A DNA stretch of 64,000 nucleotides, taken from IMG/VR virus record IMGVR_UViG_3300035438_000194, positions 1 through 64,000 of that record; one strand, 5' to 3'. Shown here in pieces: positions 4,492 to 14,589 of this stretch. Source of the stretch: a virus. Under the pieces are notes generated by a model. The model saw nothing but the letters and a program-made list of their open reading frames with translations. It did no database searches and was not told where the DNA came from. Both the position numbers and the translations under genes were made by a program. The stretch's first letter is position 1. The number at the start of each line of letters is the position of its first letter.

Positions 4492-4525
4492 TTGAGTTGG
4501 TTTTTTAGTTGATATAAATTTTAGA

Positions 4526-4603
4526 AGCCAGGGTGAGACTCGAACTCACAACGCACAACCATAAAGGGTGTGATACCATTTCCACATTACGTGCTACCTG
4601 ACT
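4526..4603 (-). tRNA. tRNA-like element, non-canonical
   Basis: Read on the minus strand, 78 nt begin AGTCAGG and end CCTGGCT, a 7-bp acceptor-type stem with one U-G pair. U8-A9 follow, and the 3' half has a perfect T-arm: GTGAG, loop TTCGAGT, CTCAC. One reading of the anticodon arm (loop CTTTATG) has U33 and anticodon UUA, but its stem has a mismatch, and the D region is about 5-6 nt too long for a canonical fold. An alternative fold pairs GCAC with GTGC and contains a TGTGG/TCACA hairpin. No CCA is encoded. It may be a degenerate tRNA or a tRNA mimic; I favour a mimic. Confidence 0.4.
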
Positions 4604-5104: not shown

Positions 5105-6508
5105 CTAATCCAACTTGATACAACTGTATCTATCAGAGTTAACGGTCTTTAGCATTACTGCTAACGGATTCAAATCATCACCACCTAATACAGACTTGAT
5201 AATGCTCGGACTATATCCGCTCACAAGTGCAGTGTTTGGTGTGTCAACCTTCACAGGTACATTACCCAATCTACCATTCACATTCCAAAAGATTATACCT
5301 GGCATCTGATAGCCTGCAGCAGCATACATACCCTTGATTGCATCAAAGTTAGTACGTCTATCACACGCTTGGTCAAACTCCATATCACTGATAATCAGTA
5401 ACTTGGTTGGCATATCTTCCTGTGATACTTTACCTGCAATTGCACGGTTAAGTAACACATTGAATGTCTTGAATAAGTCAGTGTTCATACCCCAATCTGC
5501 TTGACGTAGGTTAACTACTCTCTCTGCAAGAGTATTACCTTGTATCAGGCGGAACTGTGGACTCTCACTAAACGTCAATACTAAATCCTTGAAAGGACCT
5601 TCATTGCGTTCAGAGATATACAAACCTAACCCGATTGATACGTCCATTGGTGTACCCATCATACTACCTGATACATCACAGATTGGTAAGATACGCTCTG
5701 TACAACCTTCCATATAATTAGGTAAAGACTTCCACATAGCATCATATGCTGCTGCGTTAGACTCTTCACCCCAATTCATATTTGTGATCTTGTTAACAAT
5801 ATCACTTGGAAACAGTACCGAAGCGTTCATCTTCTGTTTACCTTCCATAACATCACTGATATAAGAACTGTATCTTACACCATCGTGCTTGGTAAAAGAG
5901 TTACTATATCTCTTTCCTGCAACAGATGGAACTGTACTATACTGAATAGTTTCCCATTCATTAGCACACATCTTCTGCTCAACAGTATTAGACATAGCAG
6001 TTAGTCTTCTACGGAAGGTACCCGCTGATACATTGAGGTACTTATGCATAGCAACAAACCATTCACCTTTACGGGGAAACCATTTGGCTAACAGATTAGC
6101 ATTCTCATTCTCCTTCAGTTGGTGGTCCAACCAATTAAGAGTATTATCACTCGGTCTTTCAATGATGAAGATGTCTTTCCAATAACCAAACACAGGTATA
6201 TGTATAGCAACTTGCTCATACACATCTGGGAATGATATCAAAAGACTTCTCATTATCACTTGGAAGAAACGCTTCTCACCTGCACCACCGCGTGCATCAC
6301 GTGCCCAAAATACTATCTTAAGAGCAGTAAGTTTATCTTCACGATAAGCCCTGATAAATGCTTTTATGATATCTTCTTCAGGCATAAAACGGCTCGCACC
6401 TGCTATAAAGAACAGGTCAATACAGAAATTACCCGCAGTACTATGTGTAACTGCTCCGTTATTGGTAAGACTGTCATTAGAAAACATTGCGTTGGTAAAA
6501 GTATCCAT
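5105..6508 (-). CDS. DUF2828 protein with von Willebrand A domain (Ro60/TROVE-like plan)
   Basis: 467 aa from the Met complementary to 6506-6508 (MDTFTNAMFSN); an in-frame ATG 23 codons earlier would start inside the leader. The N-terminal part is helical and contains ARDARGGAGEK (residues 69-79), typical of DUF2828. The C-terminal vWA domain has the MIDAS motif DVSGSM at 278-283, the MIDAS Thr in GMNTD near 343 and ISDMEFD at about 374-380. Helical repeats followed by a vWA domain are also the plan of Ro60/Rsr, which bind Y RNA. Kinship with Ro60 is a structural inference. A Y-RNA-like helix lies 30 nt upstream and a tRNA-like RNA follows the operon. Confidence 0.85.
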   Translation of the reverse strand: MDTFTNAMFSNDSLTNNGAVTHSTAGNFCIDLFFIAGASRFMPEEDIIKAFIRAYREDKLTALKIVFWARDARGGAGEKRFFQVIMRSLLISFPDVYEQVAIHIPVFGYWKDIFIIERPSDNTLNWLDHQLKENENANLLAKWFPRKGEWFVAMHKYLNVSAGTFRRRLTAMSNTVEQKMCANEWETIQYSTVPSVAGKRYSNSFTKHDGVRYSSYISDVMEGKQKMNASVLFPSDIVNKITNMNWGEESNAAAYDAMWKSLPNYMEGCTERILPICDVSGSMMGTPMDVSIGLGLYISERNEGPFKDLVLTFSESPQFRLIQGNTLAERVVNLRQADWGMNTDLFKTFNVLLNRAIAGKVSQEDMPTKLLIISDMEFDQACDRRTNFDAIKGMYAAAGYQMPGIIFWNVNGRLGNVPVKVDTPNTALVSGYSPSIIKSVLGGDDLNPLAVMLKTVNSDRYSCIKLD

Positions 6509-6538: not shown

Positions 6539-6629
6539 GAGATTGGTAGGCCACGGTATCACTACTCGGCTTTGCACATACTACAGAATGAAGAGAGCCT
6601 AACAGTTAACTGTTGTGACCTACCATCTC
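6539..6629 (-). ncRNA. Y-RNA-like hairpin upstream of the DUF2828 gene
   Basis: On the minus strand, GAGATGGTAGGTCAC at the 5' end pairs with GTGGCCTACCAATCTC at the 3' end: 15 bp with one U-G pair and a single bulged A. On the plus strand the U-G position is a C-A mismatch, which favours minus-strand transcription, co-directional with the DUF2828 gene that starts 30 nt downstream. The enclosed loop of about 60 nt holds an AACAG-UUAA-CUGUU hairpin and a GGCU/AGCC helix. Y RNAs likewise close on a long terminal helix with a bulge that Ro60 recognises. It could also be a 5'-UTR regulatory element. Confidence 0.55.
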
Positions 6630-6936
6630 GTTTTGCATTGTATTTTTTTTACAGTGCTGATTCATTCTTTAATGTGCGGGGTTATCTTATGCTAAACAGA
6701 ATAGTTGTTTAACCTTATTATAATTGTAGTTTTAATAGTGCTGAACTATACTTCACTAACATAAGACGGGTTGTAAAGATACAGAATGCAGTTTAACTTA
6801 CCATAGTTTTTTATAGTGCGGTTAACATTCTTCACTTTACAATAGGGTACGTGATAATCAGTAAAGGTGCAGGGGGCTACCCATTTTTTGAACCTTGCGG
6901 GTTTTTACCGCTTCTGCATTACCACAATATGAGTAG
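6630..6936 (-). repeat. Non-coding stretch with three imperfect ~80-bp repeats
   Basis: No credible ORF. AGTGCTG/AGTGCGG recurs at 6653-6659, 6737-6743 and 6815-6821, spaced 84 and 78 bp. Each copy is flanked by similar sequence: an A/T run on one side; CATTCTT or CTTCACT, a G-rich patch and ACAGAAT or ATAATCAG on the other. On the minus strand each reads roughly C(A/C)GCACT(A/G)T followed by A-rich sequence. At 6868-6918 TGCAG/CTGCA flank further inverted sequence. Possible roles are tandem promoters, operators or small-RNA copies. Confidence 0.4.
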
Positions 6937-8595: not shown

Positions 8596-8892
8596 AGGTT
8601 AAAAAAGTTTAAAGGGTTAACATTAGAAGATTAAGGACTTTGAAAGCACAGGCAACACGCAGCGTCTCCCGCTAACCCCCGATATAGAAGGTGTGTGAGG
8701 TAGGAAAGAGGCTGTGTGTGTGCAGTTCATTAAGGACTTTGACGCAGAGGAGTAGTAGGTAAACCACCCTAACTTCCGCGCTTGGGCCACGGTAATACAA
8801 CAGGACAGAGCACCCACAACGGAGTACCCTGTCCAACACAGCAGGACCCCGATTAGAGTGCACTGCTGTGTTTGTTTTAGTAACGAGCCTTA
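8596..8892 (-). other. Intergenic region with two early elements and stacked hairpins
   Basis: About 300 bp with no supported gene. It contains two exact ATTAAGGACTTT elements (8630-8641, 8729-8740), a structured repeat at 8744-8789 shared with 10884-10927, a GGACAG/CTGTCC inverted repeat (8803-8808 with 8829-8834) and a perfect 10-bp hairpin AACACAGCAG/CTGCTGTGTT (8835-8844 with 8863-8872). The hairpins sit just downstream of the 8893-9192 gene and probably mark its 3' end. Confidence 0.45.
8744..8789 (-). repeat. Conserved structured element, copy 1
   Basis: Read on the minus strand, GGCCCAAG, GCGGAAGTTAGG, a short loop and CCTACTACTC precede an early element (8729-8740). The same order occurs at 10884-10927. 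TAGG (8768-8771) can pair with CCTA (8756-8759). Loop bases differ between copies while the flanks are kept, as expected of an RNA hairpin or a protein-binding site just upstream of a promoter. Confidence 0.4.
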
Positions 8893-9192
8893 TCAGAAGC
8901 AACCTACAACATTAGCAACAGTATCCGCAGATGACTGTCTCGCAAGTTGTGCTGCCTCCATAAGTTGAACTGATAAGAACTCGGTTGTGATAATCTCCTT
9001 GAAACTCTCAAGGGCATTGTCGCCATATTCACCACGGGCTATAGAATACAAGGCATTTGCGACATTGTCAGCCTTATTTCTGATACCAATGGTGTCAGGT
9101 TTGAAACTCAATAAGAGTTCCGTTAATAATGCAGAGTCAATTGACACTGCTTCTCTACCCGCGCAGGATAAGATTGGTTGGTCTTTTTTCAT
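8893..9192 (-). CDS. Hypothetical early protein
   Basis: 99 aa, largely helical (LLTELLLSFKPDTIGIRNKA and EFLSVQLMEAAQLARQSSAD). No recognised domain. An exact early element lies at 9214-9225, 21 nt upstream of the ATG, and a stack of hairpins follows the stop. It is typical of the series of small leftward genes here. Confidence 0.65.
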   Translation of the reverse strand: MKKDQPILSCAGREAVSIDSALLTELLLSFKPDTIGIRNKADNVANALYSIARGEYGDNALESFKEIITTEFLSVQLMEAAQLARQSSADTVANVVGCF

Positions 9193-9247
9193 AACTTTAG
9201 TTTAGTTTAAATCATTAAGGACTTTGAGGACAGAGAGGAGGAAGGCC

Positions 9248-9481
9248 CTAAAGCCCACCATACATCTCACTGTAATCATCACCGTGCATATAGTCTATCT
9301 CATCTTCCATAAAGTTAGACTCAATGTTACCTATTGGTTTACGCACGGTAATAGGTTTGTTTGCTAACAGACCTTCATAGTAGGCAATTATGTGACCTAC
9401 ACTGATTCCGTTTAACACTTTACCGTCAAGTAAGTTAGTAAACTTACGCTCTGTTTCTTTTAACGCTGTTTCTTTGTCCAT
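9248..9481 (-). CDS. Hypothetical early protein
   Basis: 77 aa. A helical N-terminal half (KETALKETERKFTNLLDGKV-like rhythm) is followed by an acidic, Tyr/Met-rich C-terminus (DEIDYMHGDDYSEMYGGL). Unlike its neighbours it has no early element directly upstream; only 43 nt separate it from the 9525-9743 gene, so it probably shares that gene's transcript. Confidence 0.6.
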   Translation of the reverse strand: MDKETALKETERKFTNLLDGKVLNGISVGHIIAYYEGLLANKPITVRKPIGNIESNFMEDEIDYMHGDDYSEMYGGL

Positions 9482-9524
9482 ATATAAGGTTTAAAAGTTT
9501 ACATAAGAAAGAGATAGCACAAGG

Positions 9525-9743
9525 TTACATACCCTGTGCTGTCTCATACGCAGATATTTCTGTTTCAATCTGCTCTTGGAAGTGTTCTGCAAGTCTTTCA
9601 AACCTGCGTATAACAGATACTGTTGCAAAGTCTTCTTCAAATGAGAGGGACTCGGCACTCTCACTTGCTAAATAGTCTCTGTCTGACTTGATTTCAGCCT
9701 GAATATAGGCTACTACTTCCATTAATACTGATGCTTTGTTCAT
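9525..9743 (-). CDS. Hypothetical early protein, acidic helical
   Basis: 72 aa, predicted almost entirely helical and acidic (SESAESLSFEEDFATVSVIR, EHFQEQIETEISAYETAQGM). It is preceded by an exact early element at 9760-9771, 16 nt before the ATG. No family recognised. Short acidic helical proteins of this kind in phage early regions often bind host proteins, but nothing here shows a partner. Confidence 0.6.
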   Translation of the reverse strand: MNKASVLMEVVAYIQAEIKSDRDYLASESAESLSFEEDFATVSVIRRFERLAEHFQEQIETEISAYETAQGM

Positions 9744-9799
9744 ACTGTTATTTTGTTTGATTAAGGACTTTTAAAAGAAAAGCACAAGGGAGTTACCCC

Positions 9800-10012
9800 T
9801 TATGCCTGAACACCATAAGTGTCATCTTCAACCACCATTTCAATAAAGTCCTTGCTAATGAACTTGATTTCAATAGGCTCTATCAAACCTTTGCAGTATT
9901 GAAAGGTAGTAAGAGCATCAATGATGCTGTCACCTGCAACATAAAGAATTTCTTCTACACCTTTGTAAAGGTGATGCGGGTAAGTAATTAAGTACAAGTT
10001 TTTTGTTCTCAT
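9800..10012 (-). CDS. Hypothetical early protein
   Basis: 70 aa, alpha/beta in character (NLYLITYPHHLYKGVEEILY, IKFISKDFIEMVVEDDTYG). Early element at 10030-10041, 17 nt upstream of the ATG. Domain unknown. The compact beta-alpha-beta pattern could be a small ferredoxin-like fold, an impression only. Confidence 0.6.
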   Translation of the reverse strand: MRTKNLYLITYPHHLYKGVEEILYVAGDSIIDALTTFQYCKGLIEPIEIKFISKDFIEMVVEDDTYGVQA

Positions 10013-10084
10013 ATTATTAGATTTGAACCATTAAGGACTTTGTATTAGATAAGAACACAGCCCCCTATTACGAGGGCTATGTTA

Positions 10085-10408
10085 TTAGTTTGACAATTCA
10101 GCAGCGTCAAGTTCCGCTTGAAGTTCATCAGTTACAGGCAGTGTGAATACAATATGTCCTGAACATACTTGCATTTTACCGTCTTTAACATAGAACCCAA
10201 TACCTGAAGTACACTTGTGCCCGTCAGGTTGAACAAGTACAACAGTGCAAGAATAGTGGTCCCAACCTACGAACTCCGTATCAAAGAAGATTGTGCCTTC
10301 TCTGTATACTGTCTTACGCAGTGGTCCAACTTCACCTGTTGGCGTTTCACCATAGTTGTCTGAACCTTCTTTAAAGGCTTTGATTGCAATTTCTGATAAG
10401 TTTTTCAT
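10085..10408 (-). CDS. Hypothetical early protein, beta-rich
   Basis: 107 aa. A short N-terminal helix (LSEIAIKAFKEGSDNYGETP) is followed by a series of strands (TVYREGTIFFDTEFVGWDHY, CTVVLVQPDGHKCTSGIGFY) and a C-terminal helix (DELQAELDAAEL). Early element at 10433-10444, 24 nt before the ATG. Possibly a single beta-sandwich domain; family not recognised. Confidence 0.65.
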   Translation of the reverse strand: MKNLSEIAIKAFKEGSDNYGETPTGEVGPLRKTVYREGTIFFDTEFVGWDHYSCTVVLVQPDGHKCTSGIGFYVKDGKMQVCSGHIVFTLPVTDELQAELDAAELSN

Positions 10409-10466
10409 AATAAAAGGTATTAATTTTAAATCATTAAGGACTTTGTGCTAAAAGAAAACCACGGTG

Positions 10467-10670
10467 TTACCCGTGATTCTCCTGTGCACGCATCTCTCTC
10501 ACTTGGAATACAACTATCCAAGTGATAAAGGCGGTGATGATACCAAAGAATATGTTCATTGGTGTTGACAGCTCTCTTACTTCTTCATTACAGGTGAAGT
10601 TGATGATATACAAGATTGTAATAGCATCTAATAGAGCAATGATTGAGATGATGAGGGTGAATAGTCTCAT
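10467..10670 (-). CDS. Two-helix membrane protein
   Basis: 67 aa from MRLFTLIISIIALLD. Two hydrophobic helices are clear, at about residues 3-24 and 37-57, joined by a short polar loop with CNEEVREL, and the tail is charged (QVREMRAQENHG). An in-frame ATG 35 codons upstream would read through the preceding gene's 3' end, so the internal Met is chosen. A degenerate early element (ATTAAGAGTTTA at 10684-10695) overlaps the stop of the lipoprotein gene. Possible membrane-exclusion or holin-like protein; not assignable. Confidence 0.6.
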   Translation of the reverse strand: MRLFTLIISIIALLDAITILYIINFTCNEEVRELSTPMNIFFGIITAFITWIVVFQVREMRAQENHG

Positions 10671-10692
10671 AGGTTTATAATTGATTAAGAGT

Positions 10693-10845
10693 TTACCACC
10701 AATTGGTACCGCGAGAATTGTAGTTCCCGTTGTGTTTAGGTTGAAATGTATCGTGACAACTGTGTGTGGTTGCACAAGATGTGAGCATTGCTACTATTAA
10801 GATGGTTGCAATGTAGAGTAGAGCATAGGCTGTTGACTTTTTCAT
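10693..10845 (-). CDS. Small lipoprotein, paralogue of 4704-4871
   Basis: 50 aa. It starts MKKSTAYALLYIATILIVAM and reaches the lipobox MLTSC with Cys24, the same position as in the 4704-4871 protein, with which it shares MKKS-AY and LTSC. The mature part is only about 26 residues (ATTHSCHDTFQPKHNGNY) and ends in TNWW. Preceded by an exact early element (10865-10876) 19 nt before the ATG, so it should be made at the start of infection, fitting a superinfection-exclusion or envelope-modifying role (inference). The two-helix membrane gene follows directly. Confidence 0.7.
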   Translation of the reverse strand: MKKSTAYALLYIATILIVAMLTSCATTHSCHDTFQPKHNGNYNSRGTNWW

Positions 10846-10883
10846 AGGGTTATAATTTACATTGATTAAGGACTTTTGTGCTA

Positions 10884-10927
10884 ACAGAGTAGTAGGCCAA
10901 AAGACCTAACTTCTGCCCTTGGGGCCC
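10884..10927 (-). repeat. Conserved structured element, copy 2
   Basis: Minus strand: GGGCCCCAAG, GCAGAAGTTAGG, then CCTACTACTC, matching copy 1 at 8744-8789 in order and spacing. TAGGTC-UUUU-GGCCTA forms a 6-bp hairpin with one U-G pair (10893-10908). It lies directly upstream of the early element of the lipoprotein gene. Confidence 0.45.
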
Positions 10928-10950
10928 AGAGGCGCTAACACACCACGAGA

Positions 10951-11136
10951 TTAACTCTCGGGTGCATCAGCATTGCCAATGGCTTTATTAACAAGTAAGT
11001 TGAATAACAACTCACCCGTAGGTAAGATGTGTATTTCAAACTTCTTGATGTGACCTGTGGTCAACCAAGTGTTAATCTTCTGTTGCATCTTCTTGTGGTC
11101 TGCAACAGGAACTATTTCAAATTGAACTTTATACAT
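10951..11136 (-). CDS. Hypothetical early protein
   Basis: 61 aa (MYKVQFEIVPVADHKKMQQK, then HILPTGELLFNLLVNKAIG). Alpha/beta pattern with alternating strands; no motif recognised. Exact early element at 11154-11165, 17 nt before the ATG. Confidence 0.6.
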   Translation of the reverse strand: MYKVQFEIVPVADHKKMQQKINTWLTTGHIKKFEIHILPTGELLFNLLVNKAIGNADAPES

Positions 11137-11190
11137 AGGTTTACATTTGAATCATTAAGGACTTTTGTGAGCGTGAGTGGGAAGGAGAGA

Positions 11191-11220
11191 GGTGATAGTA
11201 AAAAATAGAAACCTACCACC
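11191..11220 (-). terminator. Intergenic hairpin of the GGTGATAG type
   Basis: GGTGATAG (11191-11198) pairs with CTACCACC (11213-11220), 8 bp including one G-U pair on the minus strand only. It lies 8 nt after the stop of the leftward 11228-11377 gene, matching the position of the similar hairpin at 489-514. Confidence 0.5.
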
Positions 11221-11227
11221 CCTTCAA

Positions 11228-11377
11228 CTACTCTGTTATCTCATACCACGTGTCATCCTTCCGCACTACCTTATAGGTAATAGTTCCGTCTTCATTGAGT
11301 CTAACATCTCTAATGAAGTCACCGCGGAATCTCTTCTTGAGACCCGCGATGATTTGTGTTAGGCTGTTAACTCGCAT
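11228..11377 (-). CDS. Small hypothetical protein
   Basis: 49 aa (MRVNSLTQIIAGLKKRFRGD, then RLNEDGTITYKVVRKDDTWY). A basic helix is followed by a beta hairpin. The start lies inside the end of the 11359-11553 gene (19-nt overlap, other frame), indicating coupled translation, and a GGTGATAG hairpin follows the stop. This is more convincing than the antisense plus-strand frame covering the same bases. Confidence 0.55.
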   Translation of the reverse strand: MRVNSLTQIIAGLKKRFRGDFIRDVRLNEDGTITYKVVRKDDTWYEITE

Positions 11378-11553
11378 AACTTCTTCATCAAGTAAAGGTT
11401 ATACAGCAACAGGGCTTCCGCAGGTGCTTCAAACATTCTCTCAAATGATTGAGCATCAATAGGTTGCTTGGTTATAGTTGTATACAACTTGCAATTCAGG
11501 ACACATAGGTCTCTACGCTGTTTTGCAGTAAGCGTGATTTTCTCTTGTACCAT
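11359..11553 (-). CDS. Hypothetical early protein
   Basis: 64 aa from MVQEKITLTAKQRRDLCVLN. A longer frame would add residues containing KVLN, which is only the early element (11569-11580) read in frame, so the Met 15 nt after the element is the start. Helical and rather hydrophobic C-terminus (EALLLYNLYLMKKLCELTA). No family recognised. Confidence 0.6.
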   Translation of the reverse strand: MVQEKITLTAKQRRDLCVLNCKLYTTITKQPIDAQSFERMFEAPAEALLLYNLYLMKKLCELTA

Positions 11554-11600
11554 ATTATATTTTAAACTATTAAGGACTTTATACAACAAGCATAAGCCCC

Positions 11601-11795
11601 CTAAGAAGGGAGCTCAGCTGTTGGTTCTATTCTGAAGGCAAAGCAGGTAAGGTCTCCGAAGTCTCCTTCAGAGAATTGCCATTTGATTGTCTCTGCTTTC
11701 TCAAGTGAATCGCAAATTGTTGAATGCGTCTCAATTGTTTCTTCTGCATCTCCTTCATAGGTGATGGCTGTCTTGTAAGTCAGTTTGTAGTGCAT
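11601..11795 (-). CDS. Hypothetical early protein
   Basis: 64 aa (MHYKLTYKTAITYEGDAEET, SLEKAETIKWQFSEGDFGDL). A beta-alpha-beta pattern with acidic patches. The early element at 11811-11822 differs by one base from the consensus (GGATTTT) and lies 15 nt before the ATG. Confidence 0.6.
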   Translation of the reverse strand: MHYKLTYKTAITYEGDAEETIETHSTICDSLEKAETIKWQFSEGDFGDLTCFAFRIEPTAELPS

Positions 11796-11845
11796 AATGT
11801 TATTTCAATCATTAAGGATTTTACACACAAAAGAAAGGAAGAGGC

Positions 11846-12031
11846 CTAAGCCTCAACCTCATTACAACCATAGAGCTCAGCCTTCCGTTGGACTAACCTT
11901 GCCTCTACATCATCAAGCGCACTAATATAACCGTCAGAATATTCATCCATACCGTTGGCCCTAATATCTTCCCAGGTATTCTTAATAGCGTCCTTAACAA
12001 TAGCAATAGCCAAATCTAAATCTGTTTTCAT
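11846..12031 (-). CDS. Hypothetical early protein, helical
   Basis: 61 aa from MKTDLDLAIAIVKDAIKNTW; the six residues of an earlier ATG come from the leader. Helical and acidic (MDEYSDGYISALDDVEARLV). Exact early element at 12048-12059, 16 nt before the start. No family recognised. Confidence 0.6.
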   Translation of the reverse strand: MKTDLDLAIAIVKDAIKNTWEDIRANGMDEYSDGYISALDDVEARLVQRKAELYGCNEVEA

Positions 12032-12076
12032 AATGTTATTTAAAAGCATTAAGGACTTTACAATCAGAGAACAGGG

Positions 12077-12304
12077 TTATTCACCCTGCTCATCTGTTGC
12101 ATTGAAGAACTCGAGTTCCCCACACTCACATAGGTTGTCATCATAAGTAAAGACTCCCGTCTCTAACCACTGATAGACTTCACCTTCACAAGCGTCATAC
12201 ACCCAATCATATTGGTTGTTAACATCAATGTGAATATTGTACAGCGGACCGTGCTGCTCCATTCTACCCGTCATAAGGTAGAAGATAATAAATAAAGACT
12301 TCAT
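12077..12304 (-). CDS. Hypothetical protein
   Basis: 75 aa with a short hydrophobic start (MKSLFIIFYLMTG), too short for a confident signal peptide, then an acidic soluble part with CECGELEFF near the end. Starts at Met11 or Met15 are also possible. The leader lacks a canonical early element; the multibranched RNA at 12340-12440 lies immediately upstream on the same strand and may form its 5'-UTR. Confidence 0.5.
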   Translation of the reverse strand: MKSLFIIFYLMTGRMEQHGPLYNIHIDVNNQYDWVYDACEGEVYQWLETGVFTYDDNLCECGELEFFNATDEQGE

Positions 12305-12339
12305 ACTATAAGGTTTAAATGATTACGGAGTTAAAACAT

Positions 12340-12440
12340 ATTACTTCCGCACCGTAGGTCCGCCTAAGTCTTCATTGAAGAGACCGCATATGGCAAGAGT
12401 TATCTCGGCTACCCTAGTCTGTAACAGACGCAGAAGTAAT
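12340..12440 (-). ncRNA. Candidate multibranched structured RNA
   Basis: On the minus strand AUUACUUCUGC pairs with GCGGAAGUAAU: 11 bp with one U-G pair. On the plus strand that pair is a C-A mismatch, so the minus strand is favoured. Inside are four local hairpins: GUCUG-UUA-CAGAC; GGUA/UGCC with inner GAG-AUAA-CUC; UCUUC-AAU-GAAGA; and UAGG-CGGA-CCUA. There is no reading frame. It lies between the 12459-12662 and 12077-12304 genes and could be a free small RNA or a leader element. Confidence 0.55.
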
Positions 12441-12458
12441 AGTTAAAGAAGAGAGAGG

Positions 12459-12662
12459 CTAAAAGCCCCCCTCTTGGTTCATCAACTTAGCCACGTGGCT
12501 TGGGTCAACAAAGCGTTTGGTTATCTTGAATGCTGCTGCAGGTGGACAGCTGTCAAGATATTGTTGCGCTAAGAATGCGCTATGTTTAGTGGTTGAAGTC
12601 CATTGAAGGCGTTCAACTTCTGTACCCTTGTGGTCAAGGATGTAAGCAAAGTAAAGTGTCAT
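12459..12662 (-). CDS. Hypothetical early protein
   Basis: 67 aa (MTLYFAYILDHKGTEVERLQ, then SAFLAQQYLDSCPPAAAFKI). A beta start and central helix; no known domain. Exact early element at 12680-12691, 17 nt upstream of the ATG. Confidence 0.6.
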   Translation of the reverse strand: MTLYFAYILDHKGTEVERLQWTSTTKHSAFLAQQYLDSCPPAAAFKITKRFVDPSHVAKLMNQEGGF

Positions 12663-12733
12663 ATCTGTTATTTGAATGCATTAAGGACTTTCCATCACGC
12701 TGAGAGAGCGAGGGGATTTCTCCCCCTCTCTCA

Positions 12734-12958
12734 TCACATCTTGTTGATGATACTTCTGATTTGAGTCAGTTGCTTTACAACATCAGGCTGTGCCTCTCTA
12801 AGTTCTTCAACAAGAATTTCATAGGCATCTTCAAGACCTCTGCGTACGCCCAATTGGAATTGTTCATCATCCTTTGGAAACGCGTTTATGCTAAGACGTC
12901 TTTCTTGTTGTTTGATTGCAGAATCAACCGTGAAGGTTGCAATAAGTAAATGGTTCAT
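12734..12958 (-). CDS. Hypothetical early protein, helical
   Basis: 74 aa from MNHLLIATFTVDSAIKQQER. The longer frame reads the early element as KVLN and is rejected. Mostly helical with GRRGLEDAYEILVEELREA-like charge pattern near residues 40-58. Exact early element at 12977-12988, 18 nt before this Met. Confidence 0.6.
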   Translation of the reverse strand: MNHLLIATFTVDSAIKQQERRLSINAFPKDDEQFQLGVRRGLEDAYEILVEELREAQPDVVKQLTQIRSIINKM

Positions 12959-13011
12959 AGTATTATATTTGAATTGATTAAGGACTTTACTATACAATCA
13001 AATGAACCCCC

Positions 13012-13251
13012 TTAGAAAGGAGGTCCATCTGGAAATGATGCAGCCCAACGCTCAGCATCACGTTGCTTTTGGTGTTCAGTGTTACACTTAGGACAATAGT
13101 CTTCAAAGCCAACTATCTCATAGTTATCAGTGACTATTGGGTCAAACTCTTGGCCTGTCTCATCAAAGTCGTGATAGATAACCACAGGCTTCTTGATGAA
13201 GTTTGTTTCTTCTTGCATGCAGCATAGGCATATTGAACTTTCTGTTTGCAT
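13012..13251 (-). CDS. Small zinc-finger-like early protein
   Basis: 79 aa from MQTESSICLCCMQEETNF. Two Cys pairs, CLCC near residue 8-11 and CPKC near residue 54-57, can form a four-Cys zinc site. Between them is a beta-like acidic segment, and the end is FPDGPPF. The longer upstream frame reads through the early element (KVLN) and is rejected. Exact element at 13270-13281, 18 nt upstream, making this the first gene of the leftward series. Confidence 0.6.
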   Translation of the reverse strand: MQTESSICLCCMQEETNFIKKPVVIYHDFDETGQEFDPIVTDNYEIVGFEDYCPKCNTEHQKQRDAERWAASFPDGPPF

Positions 13252-13281
13252 AATGTTGTTATTTAACTCATTAAGGACTTT

Positions 13282-14022
13282 CATACATATACATCTCTGC
13301 CTCGCTCGCTCCCTCCCTCCTCTCTCTGTGCTTGTGCTTGGCTCGTTGTTCCTGGCCACGTCAGACCATCCATCTCACTCAGACCACAAACTTTCTTCTG
13401 CCACAGCTTTTTTTTGCAACATCTGTCTAATAGGTAAATTGAGCCTTGCCATTTGATAGGGGGTACCACCCTTTGGAAAGTTTTGCCGGGGATTGTTTTG
13501 GATCCACCCATTACATCCTCTCACACAGTAAAAATCCCCCACACCAGATCAGCCCAGGGGTGTCCCGATAAACCTTACTACCCGGGGACTATATGTCCCT
13601 ACATATAGAAGTGTCCCGTGGAGTCTTATTATATGTAGATGCATGTAGTTTTTGGAAAAATTCATGCAAAATTATATAGGGTAACTCGGTAAACTTCCGA
13701 GTTTGGCTCTGTTTTGTTACGGAGTTTGGCAAGGGGGTTGGGGATTATTTTCCACTAAAAGCCTAATTCTGGTGATTATTTTCCACAATAGCTGTCGCAA
13801 AAGTCTACTATACTTGCGACAGATGTCAAGTTTATTGAGCAGGAAACTTGTCACAATTTTAGCAAACATTTGTGACAGATGTTATAAACCACATCTAACT
13901 CATATGGATAATGTCCCTTATAGGGTATAAGAATGAGGTTTTTTGTTTCTTATAAACCACATTATTGTATGGTATACTATGCAGCCTAGTATAAAACTAG
14001 CGCTTTTGCATATTAAAACATG
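13282..14022. promoter_or_regulatory. Dyad-rich non-coding control region
   Basis: About 740 bp between the first early gene and the GIY-YIG/XRE gene, with no credible ORF. It holds two matched inverted repeats (13793-13821, 13849-13877), a perfect hairpin CTATATGT-CCCT-ACATATAG (13589-13608) flanked by CGGGGAC/GTCCCG, a hairpin ACTCGG/CCGAGT (13684-13702), a direct repeat GATTATTTTCCAC (13743-13755, 13774-13786), and GACAGATGT at 13818, 13874 and inverted at 13419. A replication origin or a regulatory switch is plausible. Confidence 0.5.
13793..13877. repeat. Paired covarying inverted repeats (operator-like)
   Basis: TGTCGCAA-N13-TTGCGACA at 13793-13821 and TGTCACAA-N13-TTGTGACA at 13849-13877, 56 bp apart. 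Both have 8-bp arms, 13-bp spacers and a following GATGT. The arms differ by a compensated G-C to A-T change, so symmetry is conserved although sequence is not. This fits binding of a dimeric regulator, or paired RNA hairpins. Confidence 0.6.
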
Positions 14023-14589
14023 TTATAATGTGATTTGCCTAGCTCTTTTACCAATGACCTTTGTCTTAAGATCTACCGCTTTAAGTGCCAGTACACATTT
14101 CTGAATAACTGCTAAACTTACGTTATCCCCTTTTTCTAATAGAGAGAGGGTAGACCTTGATACTCCCATTAATTCGGATAGCTGCTGTTGGGTTAATTTT
14201 CTACACAACCTTTCTTTTTTTAGTATAGATGATATGTTATGCATGATTCTAAACAATCCATCAAAGTCTTTTGCGTCATCATCTGATCTTGTTTCTACTA
14301 ACTGCCCCGGCATTAGCATTATATTAAGCAAGCTGGGATTTATGTCATAGTAGTAACCTATCCAGTATTTTTCTCTATCAGCTAGATCGTTAATATCCTT
14401 TACCTCTTCTATGATATCTATTTTGGGGTATAGCCAGTTCTCTTCTAGAGTTTTTACCCAATCATTAACGTGCGAAGAATGTGACTTAGTTAAATGTTGC
14501 AGAGGTCTTTTCTCACCTACCGTGCTTTTGCCTATGTACTGGTATACATCATTTCTGGGATCTCTTAGTCCATAGATTATGTTCTTCAT
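14023..14589 (-). CDS. GIY-YIG nuclease domain fused to XRE-type HTH
   Basis: 188 aa. The GIY-YIG module comprises IIYGL at 4-8, YQYIGKS at 16-22 and DREKYWIGYY at 71-80, whose Glu73 would be the catalytic acid. Residues 118-170 form an XRE/Cro-type helix-turn-helix (LTQQQLSELMGVSRSTLSLL). Free-standing homing GIY-YIG enzymes usually carry NUMOD or other DNA-binding tails, so a repressor-type HTH suggests a regulated or regulatory nuclease. The leader (14590-14728) contains a 9-bp dyad that may be its operator. Confidence 0.85.
   Translation of the reverse strand: MKNIIYGLRDPRNDVYQYIGKSTVGEKRPLQHLTKSHSSHVNDWVKTLEENWLYPKIDIIEEVKDINDLADREKYWIGYYYDINPSLLNIMLMPGQLVETRSDDDAKDFDGLFRIMHNISSILKKERLCRKLTQQQLSELMGVSRSTLSLLEKGDNVSLAVIQKCVLALKAVDLKTKVIGKRARQITL

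What the first reader, a model, noticed from the sequence alone, without database searches (positions are those of the whole stretch)
12340..12440. Multibranched RNA with an 11-bp closing stem in the early region
The closing stem is perfect only on the minus strand (a G-U replaces a plus-strand mismatch). Four internal hairpins, two with perfect 5-bp stems, fill the 101-nt interval, with no coding frame. Like the 6539 RNA, a small hairpin follows the 5' strand at once, and both contain GCCGAG and CUCUUCA, so they may be related.
Basis: seen in the sequence. Interest (0 to 1): 0.7.

Follow-up and report, generated by a model that had tools for sequence, protein, structure and literature searches.

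The report
Conserved five-stem phage early RNA
A crAss-like bacterial virus carries, among its early genes, a 103-letter RNA that does not code for protein but keeps the same five-stem fold in related viruses while its letters change; it matches no known RNA family and probably works as a stand-alone RNA bound by a protein.

Summary
Folding energy alone is only modest (z about -2). Comparative evidence is strong. Two other phages (L137 = L094/L293, and L151 = L292) carry the RNA at 73-89% identity. All 99 pair-cells are standard pairs, and 8 pairs show changes on both sides. The consensus energy is -31.6, against -12.3±2.8 for shuffles that keep the conservation pattern (0 of 1000 reach it). 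No Rfam family matches. The RNA lies in the early gene arm of a crAss-like phage, between genes. The genes after it are unrelated in the three phages. In L094 it has its own copy of the early-gene promoter-like motif. This points to an independent, trans-acting RNA, not a leader. The partner is unknown. The phage's own Ro60 protein (fold confirmed) is a candidate, but Ro60 and this RNA do not co-occur strictly. Kinship with the 6539 RNA is not supported. I read it as a new, rare structured-RNA family with function inferred only.

The parts
12339..12441 (-). whole structured RNA, 103 nt, five helices
   Evidence: cmsearch R1/R2 hit and alignment A3; covariation
12430..12441 (-). P1 closing stem, 5' strand (12 nt)
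   Evidence: pairs with 12339-12350; 5 of 12 pairs changed on both sides, 2 on one side
12339..12350 (-). P1 closing stem, 3' strand
12417..12429 (-). P2 hairpin GUCUG-UUA-CAGAC, stacked directly on P1
   Evidence: one compensatory pair G-C to A-U
12392..12413 (-). P3/P3b arm GGUAG.CC.GAG-AUAA-CUC.UUGCC
   Evidence: all cells paired; two pairs vary on one side, none on both
12385..12391 (-). joint J3/4 (AUAUGCG), conserved unpaired A.AUGC
   Evidence: invariant columns in A3
12368..12384 (-). P4 hairpin GUCU....AGAC
   Evidence: two compensatory pairs
12355..12366 (-). P5 hairpin UAGG-YGGA-CCUA; stem invariant, so unproven (CCUA could also pair with the UAGG at 12416-12413)
   Evidence: the alternative appears in the single-sequence fold of the window
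12452..12471 (-). terminator-like hairpin after the upstream gene, just before the RNA
   Evidence: consensus match only
12322..12332 (-). degenerate copy (AACTCCGTAAT) of the early-gene upstream motif AAAGTCCTTAAT, between the RNA and the next gene
12459..12662 (-). upstream small early gene (67 aa, unknown), its motif at 12679-12691
12077..12304 (-). downstream small early gene (75 aa, unknown); homologues in relatives are not preceded by the RNA

Best explanation
It is a stand-alone structured small RNA made from the minus strand during early infection by a crAss-like phage. It folds into a five-way junction: a long closing stem that protects the ends, plus four short hairpins. The single-stranded joints and loops are almost invariant, which suggests that they form a specific surface for a protein, so that the RNA acts in trans as part of a ribonucleoprotein or as a decoy for a host enzyme. 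Shown: the fold, the strand, the conservation and the position. Inferred: transcription, action in trans, protein binding. Its particular partner is unknown. The phage's own Ro60-like protein is one candidate (about 0.15).
For: Fold and strand: three distinct sequences, 99 of 99 pair-cells standard, 8 pairs changed on both sides; RNAalifold recovers the same five helices unaided; consensus z -7.0. Constraint: the RNA is 73-89% identical between phages whose matched neighbouring proteins are mostly 37-60% identical (some L292-L293 pairs up to 79%). Position: in all three phages it lies at the start of, or within, the early arm, next to shared flanking genes. The early arm of crAss001 also carries a TROVE protein, and that of phi14:2 is read by a virion RNA polymerase (PMC8375218). 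Not a leader of one gene: the next gene differs in all three phages, and in the window and L094 a copy of the early-gene motif stands between the RNA and the next gene. In L094 a motif copy also stands directly before the RNA and a T7 run directly after it. No ORF.
Against: There are no expression data. In the window no clean motif copy precedes the RNA, so it could be a processed 3' end of the upstream transcript. The family is known from only three distinct sequences. It is absent from close relatives that cover the syntenic place, so it is dispensable. P5 is invariant and therefore untested.
Confidence: 0.6

Rival explanations
1. A cis-acting leader (riboswitch-like or protein-responsive) that controls the gene or genes directly downstream.
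For: Compact junction with conserved joints, typical of aptamers; it lies 35 nt before the 12304 gene in the window and about 40 nt before the next gene in L094.
Against: The downstream genes are unrelated in the three phages. The next ORF in L292 starts about 300 nt away. Homologues of the 12077-12304 gene elsewhere lack the RNA. A motif copy separates the RNA from the gene in two phages. No anti-terminator or start-codon-sequestering partner was seen.
Confidence: 0.2
2. A Y-RNA-like partner of the phage Ro60 protein encoded 5.8 kb downstream: the closing stem is gripped by Ro60 and the inner hairpins form the effector module.
For: The phage encodes a Ro60 fold. Y RNAs have paired ends and a branched inner part. 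L094/L293 has both genes. Putative phage Y RNAs near an Rsr-like gene were proposed for a Listeria phage (PMC12282133).
Against: Close Ro-carrying relatives lack the RNA. The L292 fragment has the RNA and no Ro, although it covers the place where Ro lies in L293. No Rfam Y-type family matches at E<=10. Two other RNA elements, a pseudoknot and a tRNA-like RNA, lie closer to Ro.
Confidence: 0.15
3. A structured 3' end or terminator of the upstream early transcript (stability element) without a trans function.
For: In the window it follows the upstream gene directly, with no motif copy of its own. U-rich tracts follow P1 in all three phages.
Against: A terminator-like hairpin already sits before the RNA. 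The joints are far more conserved than a terminator needs. L094 has its own motif copy before the RNA.
Confidence: 0.1
4. A chance fold of a non-functional spacer.
For: Single-sequence energy is only about 2 sd below shuffles.
Against: Eight pairs changed on both sides, z -7.0, homologues in other phages.
Confidence: 0.01

Closest known systems
Bacterial and phage Y RNAs (YrlA/YrlB, bound by Rsr/Ro60)
   Same: Small RNA of about 100 nt, ends paired in a long stem, branched inner part, encoded in a phage arm that also encodes a Ro60-fold protein.
   Different: Not next to the Ro gene, does not co-occur strictly with it, no match to any Rfam Y family, no tRNA-like (T-arm) module.
Orphan structured RNAs found by comparative genomics in bacteria and metagenomes (for example PMC2864571, PMC8040213)
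   Same: Defined by covariation with conserved joints; no known function.
   Different: This one is confined so far to a few crAss-like phages and matches none of the Rfam families.
Riboswitch aptamers with multi-way junctions
   Same: Closing stem, several hairpins, invariant junction letters.
   Different: No conserved downstream gene, no visible expression platform, no Rfam match.

Membership tests
Y RNA (Rfam Y_RNA, YrlA and related) | Match to the family covariance model | tested here: not met
   no Y family among matches up to E 10 for the window region, nor up to E 5 for the L094-type copy
Y RNA (Rfam Y_RNA, YrlA and related) | 5' and 3' ends paired in a stem | tested here: met
   P1 12 bp with covariation
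Y RNA (Rfam Y_RNA, YrlA and related) | Encoded with a Ro60/Rsr protein | tested here: inconclusive
   Ro present in G000 and G013, absent from the syntenic place in the L292 fragment; Ro carriers without the RNA exist
Y RNA (Rfam Y_RNA, YrlA and related) | Binds Ro60 | not testable with these tools
   needs co-purification
Riboswitch / cis-regulatory leader | Conserved downstream gene or function | tested here: not met
   downstream genes unrelated in three phages
tRNA / tmRNA | ARAGORN or Rfam tRNA match | tested here: not met
6539 RNA of the same window | Homology by covariance model or collinear shared sequence | tested here: not met
   R1/R2 give no match there; shared words in opposite order and not conserved

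The most novel reading that the evidence does not exclude
A new class of phage early RNA whose invariant junction is recognised by a protein (host defence or RNA-decay enzyme, or the phage Ro60), so that it works as a trans-acting RNP component or decoy during takeover of the host.
Probability: 0.45. Interest if true: 0.75.

Novelty: new variant of a known kind. Interest (0 to 1): 0.55.

Why it matters
Structured RNAs of crAss-like phages are hardly described, although these are among the most abundant phages known. A small early RNA with a covariation-supported five-way junction is a concrete object to look for in infection RNA-seq and to fish for a protein partner. It lies in an arm that also holds a Ro60 protein and two further RNA elements.

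Tried and rejected
Y RNA membership (weakened by co-occurrence and Rfam). Cis-regulation of the 12304 gene (its homologues lack the RNA). Kinship with the 6539 RNA. tRNA. Pattern scans of viral contigs gave only two distinct true homologues; the other pattern matches I inspected lay in coding or unrelated DNA and none scored as a homologue with R1. A genome contigs pattern scan gave no homologue. A search for relatives of the downstream 75-aa protein by peptide patterns found none, though tblastn on fetched loci did. An unfiltered model search of four close relatives gave only noise. A weak hit in Cellulophaga phage phi17:2_18 (14 bits) was not pursued. The 2-kb region has no match among 50,697 phage records.

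Full report
What the window is. Portal, major head and terminase proteins match crAss-like phage families. The record is 113,846 bases long. Minus-strand genes from about 14.6 kb down to 5 kb form the early arm. Nearly every small gene there is preceded by the motif AAAGTCCTTAAT and many follow a terminator-like hairpin. The early arm of the cultured phage crAss001 likewise holds a TROVE protein, and that of phi14:2 is read by a virion RNA polymerase (PMC8375218).

The observation. Energy alone is weak evidence: z is about -2, and the region holds many windows with better z-scores. On energy alone one could not have claimed much.

Homologues. A DNA search of related records found one copy at 78% identity. 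Pattern scans found a second contig with that sequence (L137) and a further, distinct copy in L151. Two covariance models give these copies 107-122 bits and find no other convincing copy: R1 in 48 related records and R2 in 22 records, of which 6 are named crAss-like or related phages.

Structure. Alignment A3 has 103 columns. P1 1-12/92-103, P2 13-17/21-25, P3 29-33/46-50 with P3b 36-38/43-45, P4 58-61/71-74, P5 76-79/84-87. All 99 cells are standard pairs. Eight pairs have changes on both sides: five in P1, one in P2, two in P4. RNAalifold gives the same five helices without being told. With columns shuffled inside conservation classes, the mean consensus energy is -12.3 (sd 2.8) against -31.6 observed, 0 of 1000; the opposite strand scores -24.2. 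The structure conservation index is 1.08. P3 varies on one side only, and P5 does not vary. P5 competes with an alternative in which the first UAGG (columns 26-29) pairs with the same CCUA, so P5 is unproven. The joints UAG, A.AUGC, C.GU and the loop YGGA are invariant or nearly so.

Genomic setting. In L293 and L292 the RNA lies 0.6-0.7 kb inside the early arm after the last opposite-strand gene. In the window it is 2.5 kb in, counted from the last shared opposite-strand gene. Shared flanking proteins are mostly 37-60% identical, less conserved than the RNA. In L094 the RNA has a copy of that phage's early motif (ACAACTTTATAAT) in front, a T7 run behind, and then the next gene's own motif. 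In the window a degenerate motif stands between the RNA and the next gene. The genes after the RNA are unrelated between phages, and homologues of the window's downstream gene do not carry the RNA. That is why I prefer a stand-alone RNA to a leader.

Possible partner. The protein encoded at 5108-6508 (minus) matches phrog_850 and two DUF models and finds no solved structure by sequence. Its predicted structure (pLDDT 87.5) matches Ro60/TROVE structures as the nine best PDB hits. A Y-RNA reading is therefore natural. But close relatives with Ro lack the RNA, and the L292 fragment has the RNA without Ro at the syntenic place. Two other RNA elements lie nearer to Ro: a pseudoknotted element just upstream and a tRNA-like RNA downstream. 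I give the Ro partnership about 0.15.

The claimed link to the 6539 RNA. The shared words are in opposite order, are not conserved in either family, and are only slightly more than chance gives (P about 0.03). The models do not cross-match.

Verdict. A real, conserved, strand-specific structured RNA. It is a new family with no Rfam counterpart, rare and patchy. Its function is not shown, and the best-supported mechanism is a trans-acting RNA recognised by a protein.

Noticed in passing
window 6540-6677 (-): The '6539 RNA' is the 3' part of a larger pseudoknotted element directly upstream of the Ro60 gene: GCACAU..GAAUGA pairs with UCAUUC..AUGUGC inside the loop of GGUAGGYCAC/GUGGCCURCC, with a compensatory change in L087 (GCACGU/ACGUGC). 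Similar architecture is visible before distant Ro genes such as L092-L094.
   Followed up: partly
window 4525-4603 (-): tRNA-like RNA about 0.5 kb downstream of the Ro60 gene: Rfam tRNA 22.8 bits, below threshold, with a clear T-arm; ARAGORN sees no tRNA in the window. A 92% identical stretch in L084 and an 85% one in L093. Possible tRNA mimic (YrlA-like) or decayed tRNA.
   Followed up: partly
window 5108-6508 (-): Phage Ro60-fold protein (DUF2828/DUF7788, phrog_850) whose Pfam names do not say TROVE; the predicted structure matches Ro60. tblastn finds relatives in 677 phage records.
   Followed up: yes
window 8600-13300 (-): Motif AAAGTCCTTAAT, 13 exact copies, about 16-20 nt before nearly every small early gene; L094 has ACARCTTTATAAT in the same role. 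Candidate early promoters.
   Followed up: partly
window 6797-6841 (-): Sub-threshold PreQ1 riboswitch-like match (16.4 bits, cutoff 39, E 0.9) in the spacer upstream of the Ro element.
   Followed up: no
window 14023-14589 (-): Protein with a GIY-YIG-like N-terminus and a C-terminal HTH near the start of the early arm.
   Followed up: no
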